Source of the DNA: a virus
Strand: one strand, 5' to 3'
Length of the DNA stretch: 39,138 bases
IMG/VR virus record: IMGVR_UViG_3300045051_000815
Location: 1 to 39,138 of that record
In this document: positions 2,590-36,600 of the stretch, piece by piece
How positions within the stretch are numbered: the stretch's first letter is position 1
Layout: the number at the start of each line of letters is the position of its first letter
Notes under the pieces: model-generated
The model's input: only the letters and a program-made list of their open reading frames with translations
Databases searched by the model: none
What the model was told of the DNA's origin: nothing
Position numbers and translations under genes: made by a program

Positions 2590-3861
2590 TCAGTGCCGGC
2601 CGTTGGCGCTGGCGAACGCGTACCGCGTGACACCCGACGGCGACTGCTCGCGCTGCGCGCCCAGGTACGCCAGGCCCAACGCGATGACCGTGTCGTCGTG
2701 CTGACCGCTCGGCGCGCCGTAGCGGATCATCCCCGACGGCAGGACCTGCGCCTCGTAGCCCAGCAGCTCGGCGGTCTGGACCGGGTCGTCGAGCAGCGTC
2801 AGGTCCCCACGCTCGATCGCCAGCCCGAGAGACTGCACGAGTGCCGCCTTCGAGGCGTTCGTGGCGTCCCAGGCCCATACTGGCAGAGCTGGTCGAGCGC
2901 GACCCACAAGTCGGGCATAACCTGTCTGCAGACGTTCGACCAGCGGGCTCCCCATGCTGTTCTTCTCAGCCACGACGAGGACCGGTTTGTACGCTTCGGC
3001 CCAAGCGTGTAGGCGCTCGGTCTGCAGCTCGTAGTCGATTTCCGAAAATCGATCCAGGGCAACCTGATGCCCGAGTGTTGCGTCCACGATCGAGATGGCC
3101 GTGAAGTCACTTACCCTCCCCCAGTCCACACCAATGACATACTGGTGTCCCCGCTCCGGTGGTCTTGGTTTGAGTCGCGCCACCGCGCGCACGCCGCGGA
3201 ACACGCCGCCGCCCTCGAGCTGCAGGAACGCCGCCATGTATTCCTGCGCCCACGCCCGCTCCGGTAACTCTGCCTGCGCCGCCACGAGCTCCTCGGTGCG
3301 GATGAACGGATTGACGGATGTTGGCATTTGCCATGATGCCCACTCCGGTTGGAGCGGGTCCTGCCCTTGCTGGTACAGACTCCAGAAGTCATTCAATCCG
3401 CGGGGAGTGGACATGAACCAGGCGCCGCCGGATAAATCCGTGAGCGTGGGCCGGAGTGCAAGTTGCCAGATGTCGAGCAGGTCGCGCACCATCGCCGCCT
3501 CGTCGACCACGATCAGCCCGTACCGCCGGCCGCGGGCGGGGTTGGGATCGTCGAGCGACCAGCACTCGAGCACGCCGCCGCCAATCATTTCGACGCGGTG
3601 ATCCTGCTCAGACTTCTGGAGCGTGACCGGTTGGAGGAGATTGCGCGCGTCCCGCCAGAACTCCGCCAGGAGTTTGTACGTCGGCGCAAAATAGCCGACC
3701 GGCTGGCGTTCCTGGAGCGCGCGCATGACCAGGATGTGCTGTGCCAGGGTGGATTTTCCCGCGCGTCGGCCGAGTGCGACCACGTTGTAGCGACGCGCCT
3801 CCTGCAGCAATTGCTGCTGGGTAGCGTGCGGCTCCGGGAGCTGGATGCGGATGGTCGGCAC
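2590..3861 (-). CDS. terL: terminase large subunit
   Basis: The packaging motor ATPase-nuclease that translocates DNA into the prohead and cuts it. The 423-aa protein shows Walker A GRRAGKS at residues 31-37, Walker B LIVVDE at 116-121, and an RNase-H-fold nuclease with acidic residues in IGVDWG (D246), VVAEKN (E299) and GQHDDT (D389/D390). This two-domain layout and length are normal for the family. The reading frame is open further upstream, but the GTG at 3861 is preferred: it sits 2 nt past the upstream stop, and the earlier sequence overlaps the small-terminase candidate in another frame. No strong Shine-Dalgarno is visible, so translation is probably coupled. Confidence 0.95.
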   Translation of the reverse strand: MPTIRIQLPEPHATQQQLLQEARRYNVVALGRRAGKSTLAQHILVMRALQERQPVGYFAPTYKLLAEFWRDARNLLQPVTLQKSEQDHRVEMIGGGVLECWSLDDPNPARGRRYGLIVVDEAAMVRDLLDIWQLALRPTLTDLSGGAWFMSTPRGLNDFWSLYQQGQDPLQPEWASWQMPTSVNPFIRTEELVAAQAELPERAWAQEYMAAFLQLEGGGVFRGVRAVARLKPRPPERGHQYVIGVDWGRVSDFTAISIVDATLGHQVALDRFSEIDYELQTERLHAWAEAYKPVLVVAEKNSMGSPLVERLQTGYARLVGRARPALPVWAWDATNASKAALVQSLGLAIERGDLTLLDDPVQTAELLGYEAQVLPSGMIRYGAPSGQHDDTVIALGLAYLGAQREQSPSGVTRYAFASANGRH

Positions 3862-3863
3862 GA

Positions 3864-4214
3864 CTAACGATCCGGTAGCTCGAGCGTGCGTTTGACGAGT
3901 TCGATCTCGAGCGTGACGCGGCCGTCCTGCTGGACTTTCTCGGTGGCCTTGTAGCCGGCGCGGTCGAGGATGTCGCGTGCCGCGGCGAGCGCGAGCTGCG
4001 GGTTGTCGTCGTCGGCGATCGCTTTCTGAATGCGATTGAGTGACGGGTCCACCAGGTCGCGGATGCGCTGCTCGGCGCTGAGTCTGACCTGGGGCGCCTT
4101 GCCGCCGTGGACAACGCACACCCGACCACCGTGGATTGCCCAGGCACGACAGGGCTCGCCATTGGTGCGGTGGGCGGTGCACACGGTCATAGGTGCCACA
4201 GGGTGATAGGTCAT
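3864..4214 (-). CDS. zinc-binding small-terminase candidate
   Basis: This 116-aa protein lies directly before the large terminase (2-nt gap). The N-terminal third carries a compact Cys/His motif (CTAHRTNGEPC, then VCVVHGGKAPQVR), a signature I associate with small phage proteins encoded next to terminase genes. The rest is predicted helical (ALAAARDILDRAGY), suitable for oligomerisation. Position suggests DNA recognition for packaging (TerS role), but neither a classic TerS HTH nor its usual coiled coil is obvious. ATG at 4214 overlaps the stop of the upstream gene (ATGA). Confidence 0.6.
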   Translation of the reverse strand: MTYHPVAPMTVCTAHRTNGEPCRAWAIHGGRVCVVHGGKAPQVRLSAEQRIRDLVDPSLNRIQKAIADDDNPQLALAAARDILDRAGYKATEKVQQDGRVTLEIELVKRTLELPDR

Positions 4215-4393
4215 GCGACCGCGTTCCGGCGCCAGAACTCGAGCCAGCCCTGGTCTACCCAGGCGACACGTTCGTGTGCCGGCCGCGGCGGCGGAGCCGT
4301 CTGCTCGCGATGCAAGTTGATGGCCGTGATGGCGACCAGGATGTCCAGCGTCATGGCGATGTGGTCGCGGTCGGCCTGCTCGTCGGGGTTCAC
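4211..4393 (-). CDS. small hypothetical protein
   Basis: A 60-aa protein starting with GTG at 4393 that overlaps the stop codon of the gene before it (GTGA) and the start of the gene after it (ATGA). The sequence is an acidic, helical N-terminus (MNPDEQADRDHIAMTLDI) followed by an Arg/Pro-rich segment and a Trp-rich end. The double overlap on both sides supports a real, translationally coupled gene. Function unknown; its position suggests a packaging or late-control accessory. Confidence 0.6.
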   Translation of the reverse strand: MNPDEQADRDHIAMTLDILVAITAINLHREQTAPPPRPAHERVAWVDQGWLEFWRRNAVA

Positions 4394-4614
4394 GACGCAT
4401 CTTCCCGTCGCGACGGAAAACGTTCACGCGGCGCGTTGGCCTGGACGACCTGTTGGCTTGCCCACAACTCGCTCTCGCGCCAACGCTGCATCCACCGCTG
4501 ATAACTACGCCATGGGCAACCCATCGCCTCAGCGGTCTGTTGCTGACTCAACAACCGCCCGCCACGGGCGCGCTCACGCCGCATGACGAAATCCGGGACG
4601 TTGTCGAAATTCAT
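4390..4614 (-). CDS. helix-turn-helix DNA-binding protein
   Basis: A 74-aa basic protein with a probable helix-turn-helix (LSQQQTAEAMGCPWRSYQRW, about residues 18-37) followed by a basic helix. ATG at 4614 was chosen over an in-frame ATG at 4641 because a GAGG Shine-Dalgarno lies 7 nt upstream of it. It overlaps the next gene by GTGA. A DNA-binding protein just before the terminase genes could be the true packaging-recognition subunit or a late transcription regulator; the sequence does not decide between these. Confidence 0.65.
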   Translation of the reverse strand: MNFDNVPDFVMRRERARGGRLLSQQQTAEAMGCPWRSYQRWMQRWRESELWASQQVVQANAPRERFPSRREDAS

Positions 4615-4654
4615 CCGCCGCCCTCGTCGTCGTTGATCCACCGCCTCCGGCCGT

Positions 4655-4918
4655 ATGCCCGGAAGCCTGTTGACACGACGCCAACACCATGTAAGCCGTG
4701 GTGATCGCTACCGTGTCTGGCTCGGGACGACGCAGTGGCAGCGACGGCGCGAGCACGCGATCGCCCGGGCTGACTATCGCTGCACGAATTGTGGATCCGC
4801 TGAGCGCCTGGTCGTACATCACGAGTCGTATGACCACGTCGGAGATGAATGGCCAGAGGACCTGCGCGTGTTGTGCTGGTCGTGCCACGAATGGGAGCAC
4901 CAGCGTCGAGCTGCCTAG
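4655..4918 (+). CDS. HNH endonuclease
   Basis: An 87-aa HNH (beta-beta-alpha-metal) nuclease. Two Cys pairs (C43/C46 and C74/C77) hold a structural zinc, and the catalytic region contains HHESYD (H55/H56) and CHEWEH. It lies on the plus strand inside a long minus-strand run, tail to tail with the replication gene (stop codons adjacent). HNH proteins encoded near terminases assist packaging in HK97-like phages; a free-standing homing-type nuclease is the alternative, and the inverted orientation favours insertion. No Shine-Dalgarno precedes the ATG at 4655, so the exact start is uncertain; TTG and downstream starts are possible. Confidence 0.88.
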   Translation: MPGSLLTRRQHHVSRGDRYRVWLGTTQWQRRREHAIARADYRCTNCGSAERLVVHHESYDHVGDEWPEDLRVLCWSCHEWEHQRRAA

Positions 4919-5587
4919 TCATGTGACTTGCGCGACGAGGTCGGGCCACTCGTACGGAGCTTGGTGGTCCAGCGAGCAGTTGCGAATACGCCCGGGATGC
5001 CTCGTAAGACCGTGCCCCTCGCCCTTCGCGTCGACAGGCATCTCACACTCGGGACACGTCTCAAGACCCTCTCCCCCCTTCGGTCGGTCCGAAGGGGGGC
5101 CGGGGGGGATGTCCTGGTCCGGTTGGTTGTTTTCTGGTTGGTACGGTTGGTACGGTTGGTTGGCGCGGACGTCCGTTGTTTGTCCATTGGACGGTCCGGC
5201 GTTTTCAACCGGACTGTCCACCATTCGTCCAGCGGACCGCTCGCGCCGTTTGCGCTCCGCATCGTCGCGCCGTTTCTTCACATACGACCCGGCGTAGACC
5301 ATCCAATCGTGGATGCGGAGCTGCTCCGATGAGTCCGTTTCCTCGACAAACCCGGACTCCAGCAGGCCCTTCCAGAATGTCTCAGGCTTCCCGCGCCACA
5401 GGCATGCGCTCGCCGCGACCGCCTTCGCATCGATCGGGACCACCCCATCGGGTGCGTAGTCGAGCGCCCACCACCAGAGAAACTGGCAATAGCCGACCGC
5501 GGTCGGCACGCTGCACTTGAGCAATGACGCGAGGCGTAGCGTCTTCGGGTGATGACCGAGGGCCTGGTGCGATTCGATCCACGCCAT
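4919..5587 (-). CDS. DnaD-like phage replication initiation protein
   Basis: A 222-aa protein whose first ~110 residues (starts MAWIESHQALGHHPKTLRLA) match the N-terminal winged-helix type of phage replisome organizer/DnaD-like proteins. A charged linker and a Gln/Pro-rich segment follow, then a C-terminal Cys/His motif (CPECEMPVDAKGEGHG) that may bind zinc. Such proteins open the phage origin and load a host helicase. ATG at 5587 overlaps the upstream nuclease stop by one base (TGATG). The frame is open for another 144 codons upstream, but that part only mirrors other genes. With no phage polymerase in the genome, it probably recruits the host replisome. Confidence 0.7.
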   Translation of the reverse strand: MAWIESHQALGHHPKTLRLASLLKCSVPTAVGYCQFLWWWALDYAPDGVVPIDAKAVAASACLWRGKPETFWKGLLESGFVEETDSSEQLRIHDWMVYAGSYVKKRRDDAERKRRERSAGRMVDSPVENAGPSNGQTTDVRANQPYQPYQPENNQPDQDIPPGPPSDRPKGGEGLETCPECEMPVDAKGEGHGLTRHPGRIRNCSLDHQAPYEWPDLVAQVT

Positions 5588-5895
5588 CAGGTCAGTACCG
5601 TCACGATCGTTTCCCAGTTGCTGGGCTTCCAGACGTAGGTCTCGACGCCCGGACACTGCATCAGGTCGGTGAGGGCCGCTTTCTGCATCGGCGACAGGCG
5701 ACCGTGCTCCGACTTCAATTCGGCGAAGATGACCCGCGGCGGCCGCACCAGGATCAGGTCGGGGAGCCCGGATTGGGTGCCGATCGAGTCGAGCTGGTGC
5801 CATCGCCACTTCCACCCGGTGAGGGCCGCGCGCTGGCGGATGCGCCACATGAAATGCTTTTCTGACTCGTCGCCGATGAGCTCGGCGCGATCCAT
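5587..5895 (-). CDS. VRR-NUC domain nuclease
   Basis: A 102-aa single-domain nuclease of the PD-(D/E)xK superfamily, VRR-NUC type. GLPDLILV supplies the Asp (D46), FAELK the Glu and Lys (E59, K61), and the following Gln (Q71 in LSPMQ) completes the VRR-NUC pattern. Phage VRR-NUC proteins process replication or recombination intermediates, often Holliday junctions or flaps. ATG at 5895 follows the upstream stop by 5 nt with a GAGAG Shine-Dalgarno. It sits between a hypothetical protein and the replication initiator, consistent with DNA metabolism. Confidence 0.88.
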   Translation of the reverse strand: MDRAELIGDESEKHFMWRIRQRAALTGWKWRWHQLDSIGTQSGLPDLILVRPPRVIFAELKSEHGRLSPMQKAALTDLMQCPGVETYVWKPSNWETIVTVLT

Positions 5896-5900
5896 GACTC

Positions 5901-6365
5901 TCAAACGATGCCCCGTCGCGGTGGTAATCCTGGGATAGGAATCCGCACCTGGAGTCGACGCTCGCATTCCATCGCCAGTCGCACCGCCACCACATGGTTT
6001 TCGTTCCGCTGCGCGACACGCTCGGTGATGTTCAGTTGGTACGCATCAACGGTCCACAGGAGTCGCTGTTTCCAAATCACTTGCCCGTCGTCATCGCGAT
6101 CGCACGTTTGCCCGGCAAACGGCAACCCATTTGCATCAGCAGCGGTGAGTGCATCACGAATGGCCTTCGCGAATACCGGTCGCCATGCGGCTTGCTTGTC
6201 CTCTTCGGTAAAGATCCCCGCCGCCACGCATGCGTCGACCAACGCGTGCGTCGATGCCCCGCCGAGCTCGCCGAGCAACTTTTGGATTCGCTCCTGGCGC
6301 GTCAACTTCGCCTCCTGCTTGACGGCCTCTTGGGCGAGCACATATGAGGTCTTATCCCGCCCCAC
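5901..6365 (-). CDS. hypothetical protein in replication cluster
   Basis: A 154-aa protein with a basic N-terminus, a possible three-helix region (RIQKLLGELGGASTHALVDA) resembling a winged-helix fold, and a C-terminal part ending in VRLAMECERRLQVRIP. GTG at 6365 has GGAG 6 nt upstream and overlaps the end of the ParB-like gene by 14 nt. No family is recognised. Position between ParB-like and VRR-NUC genes suggests a role in replication or its control. Confidence 0.72.
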   Translation of the reverse strand: MGRDKTSYVLAQEAVKQEAKLTRQERIQKLLGELGGASTHALVDACVAAGIFTEEDKQAAWRPVFAKAIRDALTAADANGLPFAGQTCDRDDDGQVIWKQRLLWTVDAYQLNITERVAQRNENHVVAVRLAMECERRLQVRIPIPGLPPRRGIV

Positions 6366-7248
6366 GCTTCACTCCCTCCACTGCGGCGTAGGCCGCCTTC
6401 AGTTCACGGCGAACCGTCGCGATTGACGTATTCGCAGGATCACCCGGAAACATTCGCTCAGCCATGCGTAACGCTCGTCCGGCGTCGTCGAGCAACGCCA
6501 GCCGCGGGTCCGGCATCGGTGGCACCGCGGCGGCCTCGGCGAGCGCGTCGGAGCGATCACGACTGTCCGCACTCACGGCCAGGGTGTAGATGCGTTCGCG
6601 TTGCTCAGCGGGCTTTGCCGCCACGTTGCGCACGACGGCGATGGCATCGCGAACTGGAATCCCAGGTTGGTCGAGCAGCGCTGCGAGCTTTGGCCGTTCG
6701 GGCTCCGGGAGCTGCGCCAGCGATTCGCGTGCCTCGAGAACCTCGTATTGCTTCCAGCGCTGCATGAACGGAAACTCGGTCGCCGTCTCGACGTGAGACT
6801 GCGCCTCAGCGATGGTCGAGTCCGGCACACCAATGCGCTCCGCGACCGCACGCGTCGAAGCCGGTTCTCGCGGGCGCCCTCTCGAATTTCGCCCGGATTC
6901 CGGGCGAAATTCATCACGCAAGGCCCCCGCCGCCATCTGCGCCAACTGTGTCAGGTCGCGCGAGCGTTCGTACTCGGTCAGGTCCTTCCGGCGCAGGTTC
7001 TCCTCGAGCTCGATCTCGCGGCGCTCCGTCTCGGTCAATTCCCCGAGTGCGCGCACGTCAATCTCATCCCAGCCCAACAACACACACGCCATCAATCGGC
7101 GGCCGCCAGCGACCAGGTGGTGCTCAGCGTCCACCACGATCGGGTGAAGCAATCCGTAGCGACTGATGCTGTTGCCCAATGCGGCCAGGTCGCCCATCTC
7201 CTGACGCCGCCGCTCTCCGACTTCGATTGCCCTGATCGGTAATTTCAC
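6352..7248 (-). CDS. ParB/Srx-fold protein
   Basis: A 298-aa protein with the ParB N-terminal fold: GLLHPIVV at residues 32-39, the nucleotide-site motif VAGGRRLMA at 46-54, and ENLRRKDLTEYE at 83-94. A helix-turn-helix-like region follows (TRAVAERIGVPDSTIAEA, ~133-150), then a helical C-terminus. Known family members bind DNA as CTP-dependent clamps in partition; many phage members act instead in replication, modification or regulation. No ParA is encoded, so classical plasmid partition is unlikely. The start is GTG at 7248 with AGGAAG 4 nt upstream. Confidence 0.88.
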   Translation of the reverse strand: MKLPIRAIEVGERRRQEMGDLAALGNSISRYGLLHPIVVDAEHHLVAGGRRLMACVLLGWDEIDVRALGELTETERREIELEENLRRKDLTEYERSRDLTQLAQMAAGALRDEFRPESGRNSRGRPREPASTRAVAERIGVPDSTIAEAQSHVETATEFPFMQRWKQYEVLEARESLAQLPEPERPKLAALLDQPGIPVRDAIAVVRNVAAKPAEQRERIYTLAVSADSRDRSDALAEAAAVPPMPDPRLALLDDAGRALRMAERMFPGDPANTSIATVRRELKAAYAAVEGVKRGAG

Positions 7249-10060: not shown

Positions 10061-10272
10061 GCCCGCCAGTCTGCGGCGGCCCTGCTGGAAACTAAAAGTG
10101 AACTAATTGCGAACTTGGGACAATCGGCAAAACTCGTGCGGAACGGCGCAACAGACTACCGCAGTCCGGAGTAGTATCGTGATACATTAGGCGGCTACTA
10201 GATGTGCACGAGTTAGCCCCTACTACACCTGTTCGCCTAGCACCTCACCAGAGATCATCTGGTGAGGTGCTA
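10061..10272. promoter_or_regulatory. divergent control region between the minus-strand run and the XRE gene
   Basis: This 212-bp gap has no gene and is more AT-rich than its surroundings. It must hold the leftward promoter for the long run and the rightward promoter for the XRE gene. Visible elements are three spaced GAA(A)CT units (10088-10117), an imperfect palindrome GTATC-GT-GATAC near 10176-10187 next to a TACATT element, and the perfect inverted repeat listed separately. I cannot assign exact -35/-10 pairs with confidence. Confidence 0.6.
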
Positions 10273-10273
10273 G
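10237..10273 (+). promoter_or_regulatory. perfect 15-bp inverted repeat over the XRE ribosome-binding site
   Basis: CTAGCACCTCACCAG (10237-10251) and CTGGTGAGGTGCTAG (10259-10273) are exact reverse complements with a 7-nt spacer. The right arm contains the only plausible Shine-Dalgarno (GAGGTG) and ends at the first base of the GTG start codon. As RNA it would form a very stable hairpin that hides the ribosome site; as DNA it is an ideal dimer operator. There is no following T-run, so it is not an intrinsic terminator. Confidence 0.85.
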
Positions 10274-10464
10274 TGCCCAGTTTGAACTACTACCGCATCC
10301 GCTTTGCCCTTTCACAGGAGACGTTGGCAAAACGGGCCCACGTCGGCCGCGAGACCGTGCGCCGCGGCGAAGCGGGCAAGGAGATCCGTCTGTCCAGCGT
10401 CAACAAGCTCGCCCAGGCGCTGAAGCTCAAACCATGGGAGCTTCAGCAACGCCCGCCGGCATAA
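10273..10464 (+). CDS. XRE-family Cro/CI-like repressor
   Basis: A 63-aa single-domain helix-turn-helix protein: LSQETLAKRAHVGRETVRRG is the HTH, followed by SVNKLAQALKLKPWEL as the closing helices of the fold. This size fits a Cro-like or minimal repressor. GTG at 10273 gives a clean start of the domain; the frame is open to 10204, but that stretch runs through the inverted repeat and is not protein-like. It is transcribed away from the minus-strand run, in the standard arrangement for an immunity switch. The operator/hairpin at its start suggests autoregulation. Confidence 0.85.
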   Translation: MPSLNYYRIRFALSQETLAKRAHVGRETVRRGEAGKEIRLSSVNKLAQALKLKPWELQQRPPA

Positions 10465-11671: not shown

Positions 11672-13084
11672 TTATTCCTCGAACGGCTTGAGCGTGATGC
11701 GGCTACTCGGAGCACCCCGCCCCGGAGCAATCTCGATGCGCTTGATGAACACTCGCAGGATCGACCGCTGCTCGGCGAGGGTCATATCGTCCCAGTCCGC
11801 GAGCGACGCCAGCGCCGGCGTTCCGAACGCCGCTCGTAGCTCTTCCAGTCGTTCGCGCGCCGCGTCAGCGTCGGCACGCATCTCAAGCAGCTTTGCGCGA
11901 ATAGCTGCGACGTCTCCCATGCCATCAAAGGTCGCGACCGCGGCATTCAACTGGCGCTCTTTGGAGTCAGCTTCGGCCTCAGCCTCGATGAGCCGTTCAT
12001 CACTTGACCAGCGACCCTGGGCATTCGCCAACTGCTGCTTGACGTACTCGACAACGTAGGTATCGACGATGCTGGCACCGATGTACGGACGCGCTGTGCA
12101 CTGCGGGCTAACTGCCGGGTGACAGCGATAGTCGTAGTAACGTTTTCGCGGCGCATCGGCACGACCCAGCAGGTTCTGGCCACCGGCGACCAACTTCCCA
12201 CCGCACGAGCCGCAATAGAGCAGCCCCTGGCGAGCGAGCAGGTTGGGTGAATCGCCACGGGTACCGCGTGCCGCACCCCGCATCTTCGCGACACTGCGGA
12301 ACAGCCGCACGTCGATGATCGCCTCGTGCGAGCGCAGGTTGACCAGCGCGCCGAAGTGCAGTTCGCCCAGGTAGAAGCGGTTGTAGAACATCTTCTCGAC
12401 CGAGCGGAACGAACGCGGGTATCCCTTCTCATGCAGAAAGGCGACGATGCCGAGTAGTGGGACCCCCGTTTCGCGCAACTCGAACGCCTCCCTTACCACC
12501 GCCGCTGACGAGACGTCGACCACGATGCGACGATCAGCACCACGCGTGTAGCCGAGCGGTAGGATCGCCCAGGGCGGGATGCCCTTTGCGACGGACTCAA
12601 TCTGGGCCTGATACGTCTTCTCTTTGGTCAGCCGCGCGTAATACTCGGCCATCATGCCGAGCATATTGCCCGTCAGCCATTTCGATGAGGTCTTGTTGCT
12701 GATCTCCCCGGCGTCGACGGCGAGCAGCCGCCCGCCCGCATCCTCGACCCGCTGCGTCACCTCGGCCTGTACCGTCAGCTTGCGGAAGAAACGATCGAAG
12801 TAGGCGACGATCAACACGTCCGCCTCGCCTTGCTCGATCATCGTGACGGCGGGACCCAAGCCAGGCCGCTTGAGCAGCTCGCGCCGGAAGCCCGAGACGT
12901 TCAACTCCTCGAAGACCGCGACGAGACGCAGATTCTCGAGCTCGCAGACGCGCTCGATCTGGCGGCGCTGATCGCCGGGTGACAGGAGCTTTTCTTCTTT
13001 GGCCCGCTTGCCGACCTGTGAGACGCGAATGATGCCGACAGCCCGTTTGAGGAACAGCGGCCGGGTCTGTTCGGCAACTACCAT
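11672..13084 (-). CDS. int: large serine recombinase (phage integrase)
   Basis: A 470-aa site-specific recombinase that would join attP and attB. The resolvase-type catalytic domain begins GIIRVS with the nucleophile at Ser22; further catalytic-domain motifs are SPGDQRRQIERVCE and VLIVAYFDRFFRK. A recombinase domain follows, then a zinc ribbon (YCGSCGGKL, later YRCHP and QCTAR) and a coiled coil (ERLIEAEAEADSKERQLN and on), the order of large serine integrases. ATG at 13084 has AGGA 7 nt upstream and gives normal spacing to Ser22; a GTG at 13183 would add 33 residues and is less likely. It is convergent with the PAS gene. Confidence 0.95.
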   Translation of the reverse strand: MVVAEQTRPLFLKRAVGIIRVSQVGKRAKEEKLLSPGDQRRQIERVCELENLRLVAVFEELNVSGFRRELLKRPGLGPAVTMIEQGEADVLIVAYFDRFFRKLTVQAEVTQRVEDAGGRLLAVDAGEISNKTSSKWLTGNMLGMMAEYYARLTKEKTYQAQIESVAKGIPPWAILPLGYTRGADRRIVVDVSSAAVVREAFELRETGVPLLGIVAFLHEKGYPRSFRSVEKMFYNRFYLGELHFGALVNLRSHEAIIDVRLFRSVAKMRGAARGTRGDSPNLLARQGLLYCGSCGGKLVAGGQNLLGRADAPRKRYYDYRCHPAVSPQCTARPYIGASIVDTYVVEYVKQQLANAQGRWSSDERLIEAEAEADSKERQLNAAVATFDGMGDVAAIRAKLLEMRADADAARERLEELRAAFGTPALASLADWDDMTLAEQRSILRVFIKRIEIAPGRGAPSSRITLKPFEE

Positions 13085-13367
13085 GGGGTCATCCTGCTCG
13101 CGCCGGCTGGCGTATTCGCCGAGCACATGATTCGTTCTCGTCGAAACCCACTCTGAAGCCGTGACTGCGTCGTCCGGGGGCACCGCACCATGTTAGCTTT
13201 TTGTTGGGCCGACGTGGACACGCTGGTGCAATAAGTAGATAGCCGCACGGCGGAAAGATACCCGACAGAGCATCCCTAAGCAACCCTCTGCGGTACGCTA
13301 GTCAAGCATTAGCTATGCAGCCTCGCGGTAGCCTCGGTCACGTGCTCGAGCTGGCGCTCCTGGTCGG
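13085..13367. promoter_or_regulatory. gap holding the integrase promoter and candidate attP
   Basis: About 283 bp between the integrase start and the end of the DUF5131 gene with no supported gene (part may be the N-terminal extension of the integrase if GTG 13183 is used). It is locally AT-richer, with a TTTTT run near 13198-13202. In several large serine integrase phages attP lies just upstream of int, so this is the best place to look for it. It also contains palindromic site B (13306-13320). I cannot define the crossover core by eye. Confidence 0.45.
13306..13320. promoter_or_regulatory. palindromic site B (GCATTAG-CT-ATGCAG)
   Basis: Matches site A at 10496-10510 in 13 of 15 positions, differing only in the central dinucleotide. 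It lies about 220 bp upstream of the preferred integrase start and downstream of the DUF5131 gene. It is a candidate operator for coordinated control of the integrase and PAS genes. Confidence 0.5.
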
Positions 13368-14684
13368 TTATCGCATCTCGCGCGCGTAGGCCCTTGGCTC
13401 GAGCACGTCCCGCTGCAGGTAACGCATATGGAATGCGTCGGCGATGTCGAGCCGCGATTGCAGAGGGCTCCCTGGAAACTCGCGCTTGCGTTCGTACAGG
13501 TTGGTCTTGTGGTAGACGTGCGCGCCCACGGCGCGCGCCTGGTGCTCCAGGTCGGCCACCCACTCGAGCGGCGGGTGCCACGCCGGCGTCTCATTCGAAG
13601 GCGATGCCCCGCCGATGACCAGCCAGTTGAACAGGTTGAGTTGCTCGAATTGCAATGGCTCAAGTAAGGGTTCCAGACTCAACCACTTCACTTTGGCCTT
13701 CACCTGTGTGAAAGCCTTTTCCGCGACTTTGACGCGCGCCTGAGCGTCCACTGTGGTGCCAACCCAGGCGTTGTCGGGGAACTCGAACTCGGCGAGTCGC
13801 TGAGGAAATTTCGTCAAAAAGAGGAAATTCCATTGCGGGTTGGCATTGACGCTCCCGAGCACGGCGTCAATCCACTCACGTGGCACCCACTTACCAAACA
13901 GGTCGGCCATCGAACAGGTGAAGACGTTTCCGTAACCGATGTCACTGGCAGCCGCCGGCGGCACGGACGTATTGCGTGGCGCATCCAATCGTTCGGGAAT
14001 GAAGGTCGGCACGAAGCCCTGCGGGTAGAAGCGGTCCGCGATGTCGCGTGCGTAACAGTACGAACATCCGTGGAGACAGCCGGTTACCGGGTTCCAGGAC
14101 CAACGTGCCCACTCGATGCTATCGGTGGACTGACTGTTGAACTTCGTCTGCCCCCGCGGCCGCTCGACCACATGTTTGCGCTGGTCTGGCGTCAGTTGGC
14201 GCCAGACCGATAGCGTGATCAGGCCATCAGCCGGATTCGCGGGTGCCGGCTGATGAATCACAGGCTCGGCAGTGACGACGTCGGCGATGTGCGCTCGAGT
14301 AATGACGGGCGTGCCGTTGGCATCGCGCGGTGCCGTCTCGACGGCATGGCGCCACGTCTCGCGCAAGCGCTCTGGCTCATCGCGCAGTGGCGCCAGCTCG
14401 CGAACCTGCCATTCATTGGCAGGCAGCGGCAAGTCTCCGGCCGGAGACTCCTGCAGCACGGCAAGCGTTTGCGCTGCAGTAAGCACACGAAAGACGTGCG
14501 CCTTGCGCCAGCCTAACTCATGTTCGACGCAATTCTCGAGACTGGTGTAGCCGAGATCGCGCCAGCGCTCGTTGTCGTGGAAGTCACGCAGGTCGAGTGC
14601 GAACTGGACCCAGGAGCGTTTGATGCGGTCGAGTTGCTGCCGCGCGACGTCTGCGCGAGACTCAGGCACGAACAGATCGGTCAC
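13368..14684 (-). CDS. DUF5131 (Gp37/Gp68) radical-SAM-like three-Cys protein with N-terminal extension
   Basis: A 438-aa protein with two parts. Residues ~180-438 belong to the phage Gp37/Gp68 (DUF5131) family. CLHGCSYC (C203, C207, C210) is the CX3CX2C cluster ligand pattern of radical SAM enzymes, within WSWNPVTGC...YARDIADRF; other typical motifs are VFTCSMADLFGKW and KWLSLEPLLEPL. The first ~120 residues are an extra helical region with HTH character (LGYTSLENCVEHELGWRKAH), which could bind nucleic acid. Stop and start overlap with TcmP (ATGA) makes an obligate pair, as is typical of this family. The reaction is unknown; Fe-S chemistry on a nucleic acid or peptide is plausible. Confidence 0.88.
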   Translation of the reverse strand: MTDLFVPESRADVARQQLDRIKRSWVQFALDLRDFHDNERWRDLGYTSLENCVEHELGWRKAHVFRVLTAAQTLAVLQESPAGDLPLPANEWQVRELAPLRDEPERLRETWRHAVETAPRDANGTPVITRAHIADVVTAEPVIHQPAPANPADGLITLSVWRQLTPDQRKHVVERPRGQTKFNSQSTDSIEWARWSWNPVTGCLHGCSYCYARDIADRFYPQGFVPTFIPERLDAPRNTSVPPAAASDIGYGNVFTCSMADLFGKWVPREWIDAVLGSVNANPQWNFLFLTKFPQRLAEFEFPDNAWVGTTVDAQARVKVAEKAFTQVKAKVKWLSLEPLLEPLQFEQLNLFNWLVIGGASPSNETPAWHPPLEWVADLEHQARAVGAHVYHKTNLYERKREFPGSPLQSRLDIADAFHMRYLQRDVLEPRAYAREMR

Positions 14685-15538
14685 CGGTCATCTCCAAACA
14701 GACCGTCCTTGAAGTCACGGTCGCGAAGCTCAGCTTTCGTCCAATTCAGCTCGTCGAGCACCTGTAGGCCTTCGGGTGTGCGCGTGTCGAAAAAGTCGAG
14801 ATTGTTCGCTCGTCCGCGAGCTTTGCGCCAAACTGGGAACTTGTCGTCGTTGGTCAGGATGAACCAACTCCATTGGGATGGACCCGACGGCTTGCGCACA
14901 ATGCAGTAGCGTTTGTCGATCGCTTGTAGACGTTCAATCAGCGTGCGACGATCGGTGTGGCGATCGCCGGGCAGCATCCGTGGTCGTTTGATCGACGTGG
15001 CTGAGACATAGATGATCAAGTCATAACGCTTGAGGTGCGGGCACCTGGCCAGGTCGGCGATGAAGTCCAGGTCGACCTGCTCGGTCGGATCGTAGACGAA
15101 CGCGCCGAGCGTTCCTGGCAACACTTGCGGATCGCTGAATGAAGCAAGGTAGCCGAACGAATCCGTGGCGTGTACGGCAAAGTCCTGTTGACCACGCACC
15201 GGCTGACCATATCGCGTGCGCAAGGTCTCGCGTAGTTGCTTGGCCCGCGTCGCGTGGCGCTCGAAGAACGCCGCCGCGAATGGGATCCCTGTACGCTGCG
15301 CACGCTCGCGGAGACGCTCCATGGAGTGGAGGGGAGTGCCCTGCAACTGAGTCCCGTCGACTAGCGTGTCGTAACCGCTGCCCGCGGTCAGATCGATCCA
15401 GATGTAGGGTCGTCGCCAATTGGGGAATCGATCAAGCGCGCCGAATGCGCGCTTCATGACGATGTCGACGATGCCCTCGAAGTCCTGAAATTTCTCAGCG
15501 GACTGGGGCCCGAGGCCCATGCCGTCGTCGTTTGGCAT
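14681..15538 (-). CDS. tcmP: TcmP-like three-Cys-motif partner protein
   Basis: A 285-aa protein resembling TcmP, the family named for lying beside three-Cys-motif (DUF5131) genes. IDLTAGSG at residues 48-55 has the form of the SAM-binding loop of Rossmann methyltransferases, followed by QGTPLHSMERL and by FAAAFFERHATRAKQL, where E93 sits in the usual acidic position. The later VYDPTEQVDLDFIADL resembles the strand-4 region. It may supply or use SAM together with its partner. ATG at 15538 overlaps the XRE stop by one base. Substrate and role are not known. Confidence 0.8.
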   Translation of the reverse strand: MPNDDGMGLGPQSAEKFQDFEGIVDIVMKRAFGALDRFPNWRRPYIWIDLTAGSGYDTLVDGTQLQGTPLHSMERLRERAQRTGIPFAAAFFERHATRAKQLRETLRTRYGQPVRGQQDFAVHATDSFGYLASFSDPQVLPGTLGAFVYDPTEQVDLDFIADLARCPHLKRYDLIIYVSATSIKRPRMLPGDRHTDRRTLIERLQAIDKRYCIVRKPSGPSQWSWFILTNDDKFPVWRKARGRANNLDFFDTRTPEGLQVLDELNWTKAELRDRDFKDGLFGDDR

Positions 15539-15807
15539 CAGTTCGACTCGCCGACCAGGTCTGCTGGCTTGACCTTCAACGCCCTGGCGAGCTTCTGGAC
15601 GGTCGTCGGGTAAGCGGGACGGGTACCCGTCTCGAGCTGCTGGACGGTGTGGCGTGAGAGTCCTGCCGCCGCGGCAAGCTGGGCTTGCGTCATGACCGCC
15701 CGTTCGCGCAACTGGCGCAGGTTTCGGATGGCGAGCGCCATGCGTTGAAGGATACGTCTCTGACGCATAGGCAGTACGGCAAGGCTGCGTCTATCGGATA
15801 AAGTCAT
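15538..15807 (-). CDS. XRE-family regulator of the TcmP-DUF5131 operon
   Basis: An 89-aa helix-turn-helix protein: MTQAQLAAAAGLSRHTVQQL is the HTH and KLARALKVKPADLVG closes the fold. ATG at 15807 is preferred because AGGA lies 6 nt upstream; a shorter start at 15741 (67 aa) has no ribosome site. It is the first gene of the three-gene minus-strand operon and diverges from the SWIM operon across a 61-bp gap, so it probably represses one or both. Confidence 0.85.
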   Translation of the reverse strand: MTLSDRRSLAVLPMRQRRILQRMALAIRNLRQLRERAVMTQAQLAAAAGLSRHTVQQLETGTRPAYPTTVQKLARALKVKPADLVGESN

Positions 15808-15830
15808 GCTACATCCTAGCATGTTCTTTG

Positions 15831-15868: not shown

Positions 15869-16111
15869 ATGAACGTCACGCTCTCGACCGACAACCCGCG
15901 CAGCCTCAAAGCGCTGCAGCTCACCGCCGGCGCCGAGGACTGGCTCGCCCTGCCTGGTGGTGGCTTCGGCATACCGAGTCAGCGCAACGATGGCGCCTTC
16001 TACGCGGCCGACTGCACCTCGTGCTCCTGCCCCGACTTCCAGTACCGCCGCGAGACCTGTAAACACCAGCTCGCGATCCGCCTGTACGCCGTCCTCAAGG
16101 CCGCCGCGTGA
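15869..16111 (+). CDS. SWIM zinc-finger protein 1
   Basis: An 80-aa protein ending in a SWIM zinc finger: C52 and C54 (SCSCPDF) with C64 and H66 (TCKHQLAI), the CxCx(n)CxH pattern. SWIM fingers bind nucleic acid or proteins and occur in recombination mediators and transposon-related proteins. ATG 15869 starts the domain-bearing frame; an open extension to 15806 runs through the promoter. It is the first gene of an 11-gene plus-strand operon and overlaps the next gene by GTGA. Confidence 0.82.
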   Translation: MNVTLSTDNPRSLKALQLTAGAEDWLALPGGGFGIPSQRNDGAFYAADCTSCSCPDFQYRRETCKHQLAIRLYAVLKAAA

Positions 16112-16652: not shown

Positions 16653-16915
16653 TGGCCGTCTACGTCAGCCCCAACGACCCGCGCGGTCCGGCCGCGATCG
16701 CGCTGGTCGTCGCGGACCAGTGGAAGCGCCACTTCGACACCGCGACCCGCCGCGTGTGCTTCGACATCCCCTCGAGCCGCCCCGGGCGCAACTACCGCAC
16801 CACCGCCGACGGCTGCACCTGCAGCGACCTGAAGTACCGCCCCTGGACCGTCTGCAAGCACATGCTGGCGGTCCGCCTGCAGCTCGAACTCGACACACAG
16901 GAGGCCGCGTTCTAA
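16652..16915 (+). CDS. SWIM zinc-finger protein 2
   Basis: An 87-aa protein with a second SWIM finger: C55 and C57 (GCTCSDL) with C68 and H70 (VCKHMLAV). The preceding part (QWKRHFDTATRRVCFDIPSS) differs from SWIM protein 1, but overall layout and length are alike, so the two look like diverged duplicates with two other genes between them. ATG overlaps the upstream stop (TAATG), as does its stop with the next start. Confidence 0.82.
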   Translation: MAVYVSPNDPRGPAAIALVVADQWKRHFDTATRRVCFDIPSSRPGRNYRTTADGCTCSDLKYRPWTVCKHMLAVRLQLELDTQEAAF

Positions 16916-17995: not shown

Positions 17996-18787
17996 ATGGT
18001 TAGGTCTGATAAACCGCTGGGCGTGATCGAGCGAGCAGTGCTCGAGTATGGGCCGGCGTGCGTCCTCGGTTTGTTCAGCGGCGGCCACGACTCGGTGACC
18101 TCGACGCACATCGCCGCGCAGCATCCAGCTTTCAGGGGCGTGCTGCACGTCAACACGGGCATCGGCATCGAGGAGACACGCGAATACGTGCGTCAGATCT
18201 GCCGGGACCAGGGCTGGCCACTGATCGAGGAGCATGCGCCCAAAGGGTGGTACGAGCAGAACTGCCTCGCGAAGGGCATGCCCGGCGGTCCGATTCAGCA
18301 TGGCCTCATGTACCAGCGACTCAAGGATGACCAGGTGCGCCGTGTCGTCCGACGCTACCAGCGCCGGCGCGGGGATACGGTCGGGCTTGTGACCGGGGTG
18401 CGACTACACGAGTCGGAGCGACGCATGCGGGTCCATCCCGAGCCAGTCCGTCGCGAGCGTGGGCAACTCTGGATCAATCCCATCCTCGACTGGACGGCGT
18501 CTGACGTGGGCACGTATATGGCTCACGTCGGGCTGCCGCGGAACCCGGTTGTCGACAAGTTGCACCGCTCCGGCGAATGTCTGTGCGGTGCCCTGGCTGA
18601 CCCGCAGGAACTCGACTGGATTGCCTACTGGTATCCCGCGGTGGCTGGGCGGATCCGGCTGCTCGAACTGGAATGCTTCAAGCGGCAACTGCCCTACCGT
18701 TGGGGCACGAAGCCATCGCAGACGTTCGACGCGAACCAGCCCATGCTGCCCTTGTGTGCCGACTGCCCGACTCGGTGGGCGGCTTGA
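17996..18787 (+). CDS. PAPS-reductase-like PP-loop protein
   Basis: A 263-aa member of the PP-loop ATPase superfamily, PAPS reductase/CysH-like. SGGHDS at 28-33 is the ATP-pyrophosphatase loop, and GVRLHESERR at 134-143 is the second signature. Cysteines C195/C197 and C254/C257 could hold an Fe-S cluster or zinc, as in DndC-type and thiolation enzymes. Phage members are frequent and mostly uncharacterised; adenylation or sulfur transfer onto nucleic acid is more likely than sulfate assimilation here, since no other assimilation gene is present. ATG 17996 is the natural start. Confidence 0.87.
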   Translation: MVRSDKPLGVIERAVLEYGPACVLGLFSGGHDSVTSTHIAAQHPAFRGVLHVNTGIGIEETREYVRQICRDQGWPLIEEHAPKGWYEQNCLAKGMPGGPIQHGLMYQRLKDDQVRRVVRRYQRRRGDTVGLVTGVRLHESERRMRVHPEPVRRERGQLWINPILDWTASDVGTYMAHVGLPRNPVVDKLHRSGECLCGALADPQELDWIAYWYPAVAGRIRLLELECFKRQLPYRWGTKPSQTFDANQPMLPLCADCPTRWAA

Positions 18788-33226: not shown

Positions 33227-33658
33227 GTGCAGCGCAACTTTAGCAGCCACCTGACAGGCACTGACCGTATCGGCATCGGATACGCGGCCGCGTTCATTGG
33301 TGGCGTAGCCGCCTCGTTACTCGGCCAGGCCGGGTGGGGCATCGTCCTGATCATGGCCATCGTGGCCGTGCTGATGCTCCCGGTAGCACTCGCCGACCTG
33401 GATACCCCGACGCGACCGTGGCATCGGGCCACTGCCGAATGGCAACGTTTCAAGTCGTACCTTCTGGGGGTCCTGGTGGGTTGGGTCGCACTTGGCTGGC
33501 TGGGCTTAGTCCTGAGCGGCGTCGAGAGCGGCTGGTGGTGGATCGCACTGGCCGCGCCCGCCGCCGTACTCGGGTTGGCGGTGTTCGCATATCTGTTCAT
33601 CGGGCGACGCGTGGTACGTCGCCGCTGGATGCGCAAGGAGTTCAAGGTCGACCCCTAA
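33227..33658 (+). CDS. four-helix membrane protein (moron)
   Basis: A 143-aa integral membrane protein with four hydrophobic segments: IGYAAAFIGGVAASLLG, IVLIMAIVAVLMLPVAL, LLGVLVGWVALGWLGLVL and WIALAAPAAVLGLAVFAYLF, ending in a strongly basic tail (RRVVRRRWMRKEFKVDP) that fits a cytoplasmic C-terminus. It is on the plus strand within minus-strand virion genes, and its stop overlaps that of the giant gene. GTG 33227 has an AGAGG ribosome site. Superinfection exclusion is a common role for such inverted membrane genes, but this is inference. Confidence 0.78.
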   Translation: MQRNFSSHLTGTDRIGIGYAAAFIGGVAASLLGQAGWGIVLIMAIVAVLMLPVALADLDTPTRPWHRATAEWQRFKSYLLGVLVGWVALGWLGLVLSGVESGWWWIALAAPAAVLGLAVFAYLFIGRRVVRRRWMRKEFKVDP

Positions 33659-36600
33659 CCACCCAGGCCGATCGGCACGGGCTCACGCTTGGCGCGACTT
33701 TCTTCCAGCCGGCGTTTGATTTCCGCCTCGCTCAGTGACTGCAGCAACTCGCCGCCCGCCTGCATTCGGGCACGTTCGATCGCACGCTGCAACGCGCGCT
33801 GTTTGCCGAGGTCGTCGGCTTTCTTGTAGTCCGCATCTGCCATTACCGCCTGTACGTTGCGTTCGATGTACTGGCCCGCCTTCTCGTTGACGGTGCGCTG
33901 CTCGGCAGGTGTCAGGTCGACGTTGCGAACCGACGTCGGTGGTTCACCGACATCAGCGCCGTTGGCCAGCAACTCCTGGAGCACCGCGTTGGAGCGAATC
34001 GTGGTCGACCGCAGGGGATTCAATGCACCCGCGCCCTCAGCTTCGTTCGGTATCGGGCGCCCGAGTTGGTCCTGCGCCGCGGGGAGTCGCTCGCGGAGGC
34101 CTGGCAAGCGCGCCTCAACGCTCTGCTGCAGATAAGCCGGCAGGCCAACATCGGCCACCTTGCCGACCTGTCGCTGCAGCGGATCCCTCGCCTGACCGAG
34201 TGTGTTGAGCGCTGAGCCATAGGGCACCAGCGAGGTCATCATCTGGCCGAGTGTCTGAGCGCTGTAACGGTCGGGCTGCTCGAGTGCCTTCCAGATCGCC
34301 CCGATGCCTTGCAGGTACGACTGCTCGGTGACGAGCTTCGCGGTGCGGCGCCCGGCGTCGACGAGGATGGCAGGCACGTTGGCTGCGTTCTGCTTGCGGT
34401 ACTGGATCGCTTCCGCGGCACCCGCGGCCATGGCTAGCGGTGTCGCGACCGGACCCCAGTTGGCATAACTCACGTAATGGTCGCCGAGCTTCAGGCTGTA
34501 GGGTTGCCAGCCCTGGGCCCGGAGCATGTCGCGTTTCTCGGGATCGTCAGGACCGGCCCCCGTGATCGCACCCTCCTGGGCTTTCTGGAAGAACGCAACG
34601 GTCGCCGCGGTACCCATGATGTTGTCGCCTAGCCGCTCACCCAGCGGCGCCACGCCTTTCGACGGACCGACGCTCGCACCCAGTTGCTCGCGCAGATTGC
34701 CGAGCGTGCGCGGCCCGTACTTTCCGCGCCCAATGTCGATCGCGGTACCAATAGCGCCGACCGGGCTGCGATCAATGCCACGAGCCTGGATGTGGTAGAC
34801 GGTGCGCAAGAACGGCAGGATGACGTTACCGAGGAAGGGCACCCTCTGGATCTGCTCGAGCGCTGTGCCGAGCGAGCCCATCTCGCCGTGGTAGACCATC
34901 CGCTCACTGATCGCATCGGCTTCCTTGAGCATGTCCTTGCTCGGATTGCTCAGCAGTTCGGCGACTCGCTCGTTCCACGCCGGACCCGATAGCCCTTCCT
35001 TGCTCGCGGTCACGCCGGCTCTGCGGCCGAGCGCCATCGACTGCGCCATGGCCTTACCCCAGGCGTCGCCCGCACCCAGTATCCGTGAGGGCACGTCAAG
35101 TACCTTGGCAACCGGTTGCAGCACGGGGTTGCGCACACGATCGGCGAGGGAGTGCGGGATCTCACCCGCGAGCGCCTGCTCCGTGGTCATGCCGTGCGTG
35201 AGCGTTTCCATGAACGCCCGTCGACCCTTGTCGAAGCCAGCAACCAGGCCGGCGGCCTCGGGCGCGAGCTCCTCCGGTCGCCCGCGGAGCAGCGATGCCC
35301 CCGTGTCGCGAGCCATCCGCCACGGGATCTCGAGTGCGTTGCCGATCCCGTTGACCTCGATGGTGCGCGGGCCGCTGAGCATGCTGTTGTAGCGGAGCGC
35401 CTTGACCCAATCCTGGAAGCCAGCCTCGGGGTTCTTCAGCTTGGCCCAGAACTGCGCAAGTTGGATCGGTGACGCACCGGCTTGCTGCAGCGCGTTGAGC
35501 TCCTGGACCGCGGCGAGGGCGTTGTCGCGACCACCCAGGGTCTTGTAGATCTCAGAGATCGCCTCGTTTGGCGGCAGATCGATCAACCGCGTTTCGGCCT
35601 TCCAAGCGCTTCCAGCGCGGCCCCACTCGGCGCGCGCGCCCTCCATCATCGTCGTCAGGTCCTGAAGTTTGTTGCCCTCAATGGCGGCCTGCGCGATGAG
35701 CTGATCGGTGGCCTCGCCCCGCCCAGCAGCGGTCGAGACCTGTTCGGCCAGGTCCTGGACCTTCTGGGCCTGACCGGTGATGACGTTGCGCAGCGCGCGG
35801 GTCTCTTCCGTGTTGAGCGTTGTGCCGATCTTGCTTTGCTTGATCCAGTCGTCGACCGAACGCCCGACCTGGTCGGCCATCGCTTCGGCCTGCGCGTTGG
35901 GGATCACGCCGCGCCGCTGCTCGGCAGCGAAGTCCGTCGCCCGGGCGGCGTCCTCAATGGTGGGCTGCAGCCAATCGGGGAACTTGTCCAGACGCAGACG
36001 CGCCACTTCGGCCGCATCGCCCGCGGCAGTCCGACCTTCACTCGACGGCAGAACTTCCGCTGCTCCTGGCGACGGCGCTGCCGGTGGTCGTGAAGGAAGT
36101 GCCCCACCAGTGTCTCCAGTCGCAGGGGCTGCGCGATTCTCGGGCGCTCTGAAACCGGCGGCTTCAGCGCCGACACCCGCTGGTTCGGGAGCAGCGACTG
36201 GTTCGACCGCTGCGGAGATATCGGCACCGACGGGCCGTCCGCGATACGGAATCCGAATGCCCTCGGGCGTTTGTTCCGCGGCAGCAAAGTCGAAACGGCG
36301 TGCGATACGCGGGCTTTTGGCGAGCTGATCCGCCTGACGCTGCGTTTTGACGACGATCGCCTTGACCGCACCGGGAACGGTTCTGCTGACGGTGTACTCC
36401 TGGCCGCCACCGGTCCTGGAGGTGAACTCGAGCCCCGGCTTCTGCGGCGCGACGCCGCCATTCGCGCGAGCTGGCTCGAACTCGAGCATGACGCCCTTGC
36501 CGCCCTGACCAAGCGCAAGATCCCGATTGTCCGAGGTGAAGATGGGCGTGTGGTTGCGCGGACCGGCCTCGACCCGCTCGATCAACGCACCCGCACTGGG

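What the first reader, a model, noticed from the sequence alone, without database searches (positions are those of the whole stretch)
13368..15807. XRE - TcmP - DUF5131 operon: a possible phage-borne nucleic-acid modification or defence/counter-defence module
Three overlapping genes encode a regulator, a SAM-binding-type TcmP protein (IDLTAGSG loop) and a radical-SAM-like three-Cys protein (C203/C207/C210). TcmP and DUF5131 are known to pair, but their chemistry is, to my knowledge, undescribed. Here the pair carries its own repressor and sits beside the integrase, where prophages typically keep cargo.
Basis: partly seen in the sequence, partly recalled or inferred. Interest (0 to 1): 0.8.

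Follow-up and report, generated by a model that had tools for sequence, protein, structure and literature searches.

The report
Phage two-enzyme DNA-modification pair, probable
A phage carries two partner genes, one shaped like a known base-methylating enzyme and one shaped like a DNA-repairing radical enzyme joined to a DNA-binding domain, which probably work together to chemically mark DNA; the pairing was already known, but no test of its chemistry was found.

Summary
On the minus strand, 15807-13368, lie XRE, TcmP-like and DUF5131 genes with 1- and 4-base overlaps; the Cys motif is C203-x3-C207-x2-C210; a serine recombinase follows about 185 bp downstream. The window is an IMG/VR virus record.

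New here. TcmP is RlmJ-like (family-to-family hhalign E 4e-12; model Z 17.4, next fold 14.0). It keeps RlmJ's essential K18 and D164 (here K16 and D150, invariant in 63 proteins), but lacks RlmJ's RNA-binding helical subdomain and DPPY motif. The DUF5131 domain is modelled closest to spore photoproduct lyase (Z 14.0), a DNA-acting radical-SAM enzyme. In 59 of 82 viral loci it carries a ParB-like N-terminus, a module that also heads phage adenine methylases; this copy keeps only a helical HTH-like part. TcmP accompanies DUF5131 in 75 of 82 viral loci, and 29 of 30 Actinomycetota TcmP loci have a DUF5131-like neighbour.

The XRE is probably not the pair's own repressor: it is coupled to TcmP only here and perhaps in L043.

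Best reading: a DNA-targeted two-protein base-modification enzyme protecting phage or prophage DNA (about 0.5). PADLOC already lists the pair as defence candidate PDC-M30. Substrate and product are unknown.

The parts
13368..14684 (-). DUF5131 protein (438 aa): N-terminal helical HTH-like domain (about aa 1-140) plus SPL-like radical-SAM domain (about aa 180-400) with C203-x3-C207-x2-C210
14681..15538 (-). TcmP-like protein (285 aa), RlmJ-like class I methyltransferase fold; motif I IDLTAGSG (aa 48-55), catalytic-pair candidates K16 and D150
15538..15807 (-). XRE-type regulator, 89 aa from the ATG at 15807 (ORF open to 15972); TGATG overlap with TcmP
15805..15823 (.). 19-bp perfect palindrome CATGCTA-CATCC-TAGCATG over the XRE start codon; candidate operator
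   Evidence: its role is inference
11672..13183 (-). large serine recombinase (integrase), about 185 bp downstream of DUF5131, same strand; context, not part of the enzyme pair

Best explanation
The pair is a two-protein, SAM-dependent base-modification enzyme that acts on DNA. TcmP is an RlmJ-like methyltransferase-fold protein that binds SAM and an adenine-like base through its conserved Lys and Asp. DUF5131 is an SPL-like radical-SAM enzyme that makes a 5'-deoxyadenosyl radical to functionalise the same or the paired base. The HTH (elsewhere ParB) module on DUF5131 brings the complex to DNA. The likely purpose is to mark phage or prophage DNA so that host nucleases spare it. SHOWN: gene order, near-constant pairing, folds at high model confidence, retained catalytic and Cys residues, ParB fusion in relatives. 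INFERRED: that the two act as one enzyme, that DNA is the substrate, what the product is, and the protective role.
For: TcmP: profile-profile match to RlmJ with K18 aligned to K16 and D164 to D150; model pLDDT 91.6 with RlmJ on top; K18A and D164A abolish RlmJ activity (PMC3814359). DUF5131: model pLDDT 90.4, SPL on top; CX3CxYCY as in B. subtilis SPL C91-x3-C95-x-Y97-C98-Y99. ParB_N fused to DUF5131 in relatives; that ParB module's phage hits include the N-termini of annotated adenine-specific DNA methylases. ParB-fused DNA methylases upstream of terminase are a described phage DNA-modification arrangement (PMC6536676). Near-obligate pairing. Distance matrices of the two proteins correlate, r 0.44 against a permutation maximum of 0.12. 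Neighbours include DNA methyltransferases, terminase, SSB, RecT, DnaB and DnaC.
Against: TcmP has DPTE (family mostly DPNG) instead of the DPPY of N6-adenine methylases, and lacks RlmJ's Y4/H6, so methyl transfer is not assured. No modified base has been measured. This copy lacks ParB_N. The models show no DNA contact and no two-protein complex was modelled. Most chromosomal DUF5131 partners found have no N-terminal extension, so a non-DNA substrate is possible.
Confidence: 0.5

Rival explanations
1. Anti-phage defence module (PDC-M30): the prophage expresses the pair from the XRE-integrase operon during lysogeny to attack or disable competing phages.
For: DUF5131 matches PADLOC PDC-M41B and PDC-M30B at about 1e-38. 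The pair lies on the XRE/integrase strand. Type I restriction S (3) and M (3) proteins occur among 95 neighbours of chromosomal pairs and are absent from the families listed for 95 control proteins. PDC-M30 was predicted in 32 P. aeruginosa strains, 68.8% of them resistant (PMC10855318). A TcmP gene, SMa2243, is listed right after hna (SMa2245) in a table grouped by putative transcriptional unit for S. meliloti (PMC12445080).
Against: PDC models are predictions. Resistance counts are correlations. There is no obvious effector such as a nuclease here. Many relatives sit in phage DNA-metabolism or packaging regions rather than in cargo. The PADLOC test counted few proteins and gave no per-protein totals.
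Confidence: 0.23
2. DNA repair enzyme: an SPL-like direct reversal of base damage in phage DNA, with TcmP as a base-flipping partner.
For: SPL is the closest solved structure, ahead of RlmN and viperin. The two tyrosines important in SPL have equivalents Y209 and Y211, 66/70 and 69/70 conserved.
Against: The SPL family model PF20903 does not match. The H-donor Cys141 has no proven equivalent (C257 is in 53 of 70). TcmP has no known role in repair.
Confidence: 0.1
3. RNA (tRNA or rRNA) modification enzyme, for example to counter host anticodon nucleases or to alter translation.
For: RlmJ is an rRNA enzyme, and RlmN, also an RNA modifier, is the second-best fold family for DUF5131.
Against: TcmP lacks RlmJ's inserted helical subdomain. 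ParB and HTH fusions point to DNA.
Confidence: 0.12

Closest known systems
TcmP / DUF5131 (Gp37/Gp68) pair; PADLOC PDC-M30
   Same: Same two families side by side; DUF5131 scores far above the Pfam cut-off.
   Different: The TcmP here is below the TIGR04474 cut-off. The partner has Cys spacing CX3CX2C instead of CX6CX2C (19 chromosomal loci) or CX3CX3C (7 loci), and an N-terminal DNA-binding extension that chromosomal partners mostly lack.
RlmJ, 23S rRNA m6A2030 methyltransferase
   Same: Core fold, SAM motif I, GSP loop, catalytic Lys and Asp.
   Different: No inserted helical subdomain, DPTE/DPNG instead of DPPY, no Y4/H6.
Spore photoproduct lyase
   Same: Predicted barrel fold; CX3CxYCY motif with both tyrosines.
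   Different: PF20903 does not match; the H-donor Cys is unproven; HTH/ParB module ahead of the radical-SAM domain.
NCBIfam rSAM_mob_pairA (TIGR04471)
   Same: Best NCBIfam match of DUF5131, 84 bits, E 9e-24.
   Different: Far below its 355-bit cut-off; its named partner is pairB, not TcmP.
ParB-fused phage DNA methylases / ParB-Tls locus
   Same: Same kind of ParB N-terminal module in relatives; some relatives lie beside terminase.
   Different: Catalytic domain is radical-SAM-like; the window copy has no ParB_N and is not between ParB and terminase.

Membership tests
DUF5131 (PF07505) | Pfam gathering score 28.9 | tested here: met
   133.4 bits
Radical SAM superfamily | CX3CX2C cluster-binding motif | tested here: met
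   C203, C207, C210 invariant in 70
Radical SAM superfamily | TIM-barrel-type fold | tested here: met
   Predicted model; SPL Z 14.0, RlmN 11.3, viperin 11.1
Radical SAM superfamily | PF04055 curated cut-off | tested here: not met
   14.7 against 29.5 bits; the general model misses divergent members, so this weighs little
Radical SAM superfamily | [4Fe-4S] cluster and SAM cleavage | not testable with these tools
   Needs purified protein
TcmP (TIGR04474) | Curated cut-off 53 bits | tested here: not met
   28.5 bits; 'TcmP-like' is the safe name
TcmP (TIGR04474) | Encoded next to a three-Cys-motif protein | tested here: met
   Adjacent, overlapping; 29 of 30 chromosomal TcmP loci have a DUF5131-like neighbour
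RlmJ | Catalytic K18 and D164 | tested here: met
   K16 and D150 by hhalign, invariant in 63
RlmJ | DPPY motif IV, Y4 and H6 | tested here: not met
   DPTE; no Y4/H6 equivalents
RlmJ | Inserted helical subdomain | tested here: not met
   Absent in the alignment
Spore photoproduct lyase | PF20903 match | tested here: not met
   No match in the record
Spore photoproduct lyase | Y97/Y99 and C141 (B. subtilis numbering) | tested here: inconclusive
   Y209/Y211 conserved; C257 in 53 of 70, register with C141 not established
PDC-M30 (PADLOC) | Models A and B both match | tested here: inconclusive
   B at 2.5e-37, A only at 0.0016
PDC-M30 (PADLOC) | Anti-phage activity | not testable with these tools
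   Needs plaque assays
ParB-Tls DNA-modification locus | Lies between ParB and terminase large subunit | tested here: not met
   Window has ParB 6352-7248 and terminase 2590-4182, with the pair elsewhere; L003 has the pair next to terminase

The most novel reading that the evidence does not exclude
TcmP and ParB/HTH-DUF5131 form a new class of DNA hypermodification enzyme, in which an adenine-binding RlmJ-type protein and an SPL-type radical enzyme act together on one base or base pair to make a nucleoside not yet described.
Probability: 0.27. Interest if true: 0.88.

Novelty: new variant of a known kind. Interest (0 to 1): 0.58.

Why it matters
TcmP/DUF5131 is a widespread pair (34 of 296 sampled Actinomycetota genomes hold TcmP over cut-off) with no published chemistry found here. 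Recognising TcmP as RlmJ-like with the catalytic Lys/Asp kept, and DUF5131 as SPL-like with ParB/HTH fusions in phages, turns a nameless pair into a testable one: express both, look for a new nucleoside in DNA, and mutate K16, D150 or C203. If correct it would add another radical-SAM chemistry to phage DNA modification and clarify what the candidate defence system PDC-M30 does.

Tried and rejected
Close TcmP relatives by tblastn in the phage and plasmid collections: none at 1e-5. Single-protein scan of viral contigs with TcmP: no relatives; they were reached instead through DUF5131. Direct sequence search of PDB with single proteins: nothing useful; the DUF5131 profile gave only a spurious hit at 0.19. 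hhalign of clostridial SPL against DUF5131: no meaningful alignment (low diversity), so the SPL link rests on the model and the motif. Foldseek alone did not rank RlmJ first for TcmP; the VIA second look and hhalign did. N-terminal module of this copy in phages: no match. Literature for DUF5131, TIGR04474 or PF07505: none in the held library. Iyer et al. 2013 (gkt573), which defines the ParB-terminase locus and may already discuss such radical enzymes, is not held, so priority could not be checked. XRE as part of the system: rejected.

Full report
WHAT IS THERE. The window is a 39,138-base virus record. On the minus strand lie, in order of transcription, an XRE regulator (likely 15807-15538), a TcmP-like gene (15538-14681), a DUF5131 gene (14684-13368) and, after about 185 bp, a serine recombinase (13183-11672). 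The overlaps are TGATG and GTGA, typical of translational coupling. The XRE ORF is open to 15972, but the ATG at 15807 has an AGGA motif upstream, and a perfect 19-bp palindrome (15805-15823) covers it. That palindrome is a plausible operator; the role is inferred, and the terminator scan also scores it as a terminator-like stem.

PAIRING. Relatives of the DUF5131 protein were collected from viral contigs (81 loci) and from bacterial and archaeal genomes (32 loci). Counting the window, 75 of 82 viral loci have a TcmP-like gene, nearly always just upstream on the same strand; of the seven without, three are cut off at a contig end. That TcmP profile was seeded with the upstream ORFs of the first loci, so it is partly circular, and some loci are near-duplicates. 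An independent check was made from the other side: in 296 Actinomycetota genomes TIGR04474 finds TcmP over cut-off in 34, and of the 30 loci fetched 29 have a DUF5131-like gene next to it. Distances within the two families correlate (r 0.44; highest of 2000 permutations 0.12), as expected for co-inherited partners.

TcmP. The AlphaFold model (63 sequences, pLDDT 91.6) has a class I methyltransferase fold. Among solved structures RlmJ stands apart (Z 17.4 over 210 residues; the next family is at 14.0). A profile of RlmJ proteins (E. coli RlmJ plus relatives) aligns to the TcmP profile with probability 97.6% and E 4e-12. The alignment puts TcmP K16 on RlmJ K18 and D150 on D164, the two residues that K18A and D164A mutants show to be essential (PMC3814359), and these are the only two invariant positions in the 63-sequence alignment. 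The local alignment covers the SAM core and D164 with high confidence; K16 on K18 comes from the global alignment and is less certain. Missing are RlmJ's inserted helical subdomain, the PPY of DPPY (here PTE, in most relatives PNG) and the Y4/H6 tail. So TcmP shares part of RlmJ's machinery but is not an RlmJ.

DUF5131. The model (70 sequences, pLDDT 90.4) puts residues 139-394 closest to spore photoproduct lyase (Z 13.4-14.0), ahead of RlmN (11.3) and viperin (11.1). C203, C207 and C210 are invariant, and Y209 and Y211 nearly so, matching C91-x3-C95-x-Y97-C98-Y99 of B. subtilis SPL. Across TcmP partners three Cys spacings occur: CX3CX2C in all 70 sequences aligned with this protein, CX6CX2C in 19 chromosomal loci and CX3CX3C in seven. 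SPL family membership fails (PF20903).

DNA-BINDING FUSION. In 59 of 82 viral loci the sequence ahead of the DUF5131 domain looks ParB-like by motif, and Pfam confirms ParB_N in seven of nine DUF5131 relatives scanned. In the phage collection, hits to that ParB module include the N-termini of annotated adenine-specific DNA methylases. ParB-fused m6A/m4C methylases upstream of terminase are a described phage arrangement (PMC6536676). The window's own N-terminus is a helical domain with best similarity to Raf1 and, by Foldseek, the ParB-family protein Noc; it lacks ParB_N. Neighbours among viral loci include terminase (11), DNA methyltransferases (9 and 5), serine recombinase (7), RecT (6), tyrosine integrase (5), SSB (5), helicase (5), DnaB (4) and DnaC (4), and in 8 a small HNH-like ORF between the pair. 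The integrase, serine recombinase and SSB labels for clusters rest on reading the sequences; gene calls in these high-GC loci are approximate.

REGULATOR. XRE homologues lie on the opposite strand 1.2-1.8 kb away in L004, L009 and L010. In L043 one lies divergently 280 bases off, and a second, weaker match overlaps the TcmP start, as in the window. The XRE is therefore most likely the phage's own switch, with the pair placed beside it. In this phage the pair is on the XRE-integrase strand, as lysogenic cargo would be.

DEFENCE. PADLOC models PDC-M30B and PDC-M41B match. Among 95 neighbours of chromosomal pairs, 244 PADLOC families were hit, including type I restriction S and M in 3 proteins each; among 95 control proteins from five of the same genomes 41 were hit, none of the families shown being restriction genes. 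Many models hit the same protein, so these numbers overstate the contrast; it is suggestive only.

CONCLUSION. A DNA-targeted two-enzyme modification system is best supported (about 0.5). A defence system, RNA modification and DNA repair remain open. The pairing itself is already in public annotation; new here, as far as the held literature shows, are the RlmJ-type assignment with retained catalytic residues, the SPL-like fold, the three Cys spacings, the ParB/HTH fusion and the demotion of the XRE.

Noticed in passing
17996-18787: PAPS-reductase-like (CysH/PP-loop) protein, phrog_424, with a very weak DndC similarity (E 0.014); phage homologues are of unclear role.
   Followed up: no
15870-16111 and about 16690-16915: Two small proteins with SWIM-type zinc-finger motifs on the plus strand, divergent from XRE; the first has PF04434 E 6e-7 and a counterpart divergent from XRE in L004.
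   Followed up: partly
L016:5115-5360 and L028:5192-5452: Short HNH-like ORF between TcmP and DUF5131 in 8 viral loci; could be a nuclease linked to the modification. Absent from the window.
   Followed up: partly
L147, L148, L149, L152, L153, L155, L162: Chromosomal TcmP partners with a CX3CX3C motif (GCTHGCTYPCYA), a different subfamily from the PF07505-type CX6CX2C partners.
   Followed up: partly
33655-38958: 1767-aa protein whose C-terminal part matches internal virion protein phrog_6651 (E 7e-29).
   Followed up: no
10204-10464: Second XRE-type regulator on the plus strand, on the other side of the recombinase.
   Followed up: no
2590-7248: Terminase large subunit, replication initiator and ParB-like genes in a row, the phage's own ParB-terminase region.
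   Followed up: partly
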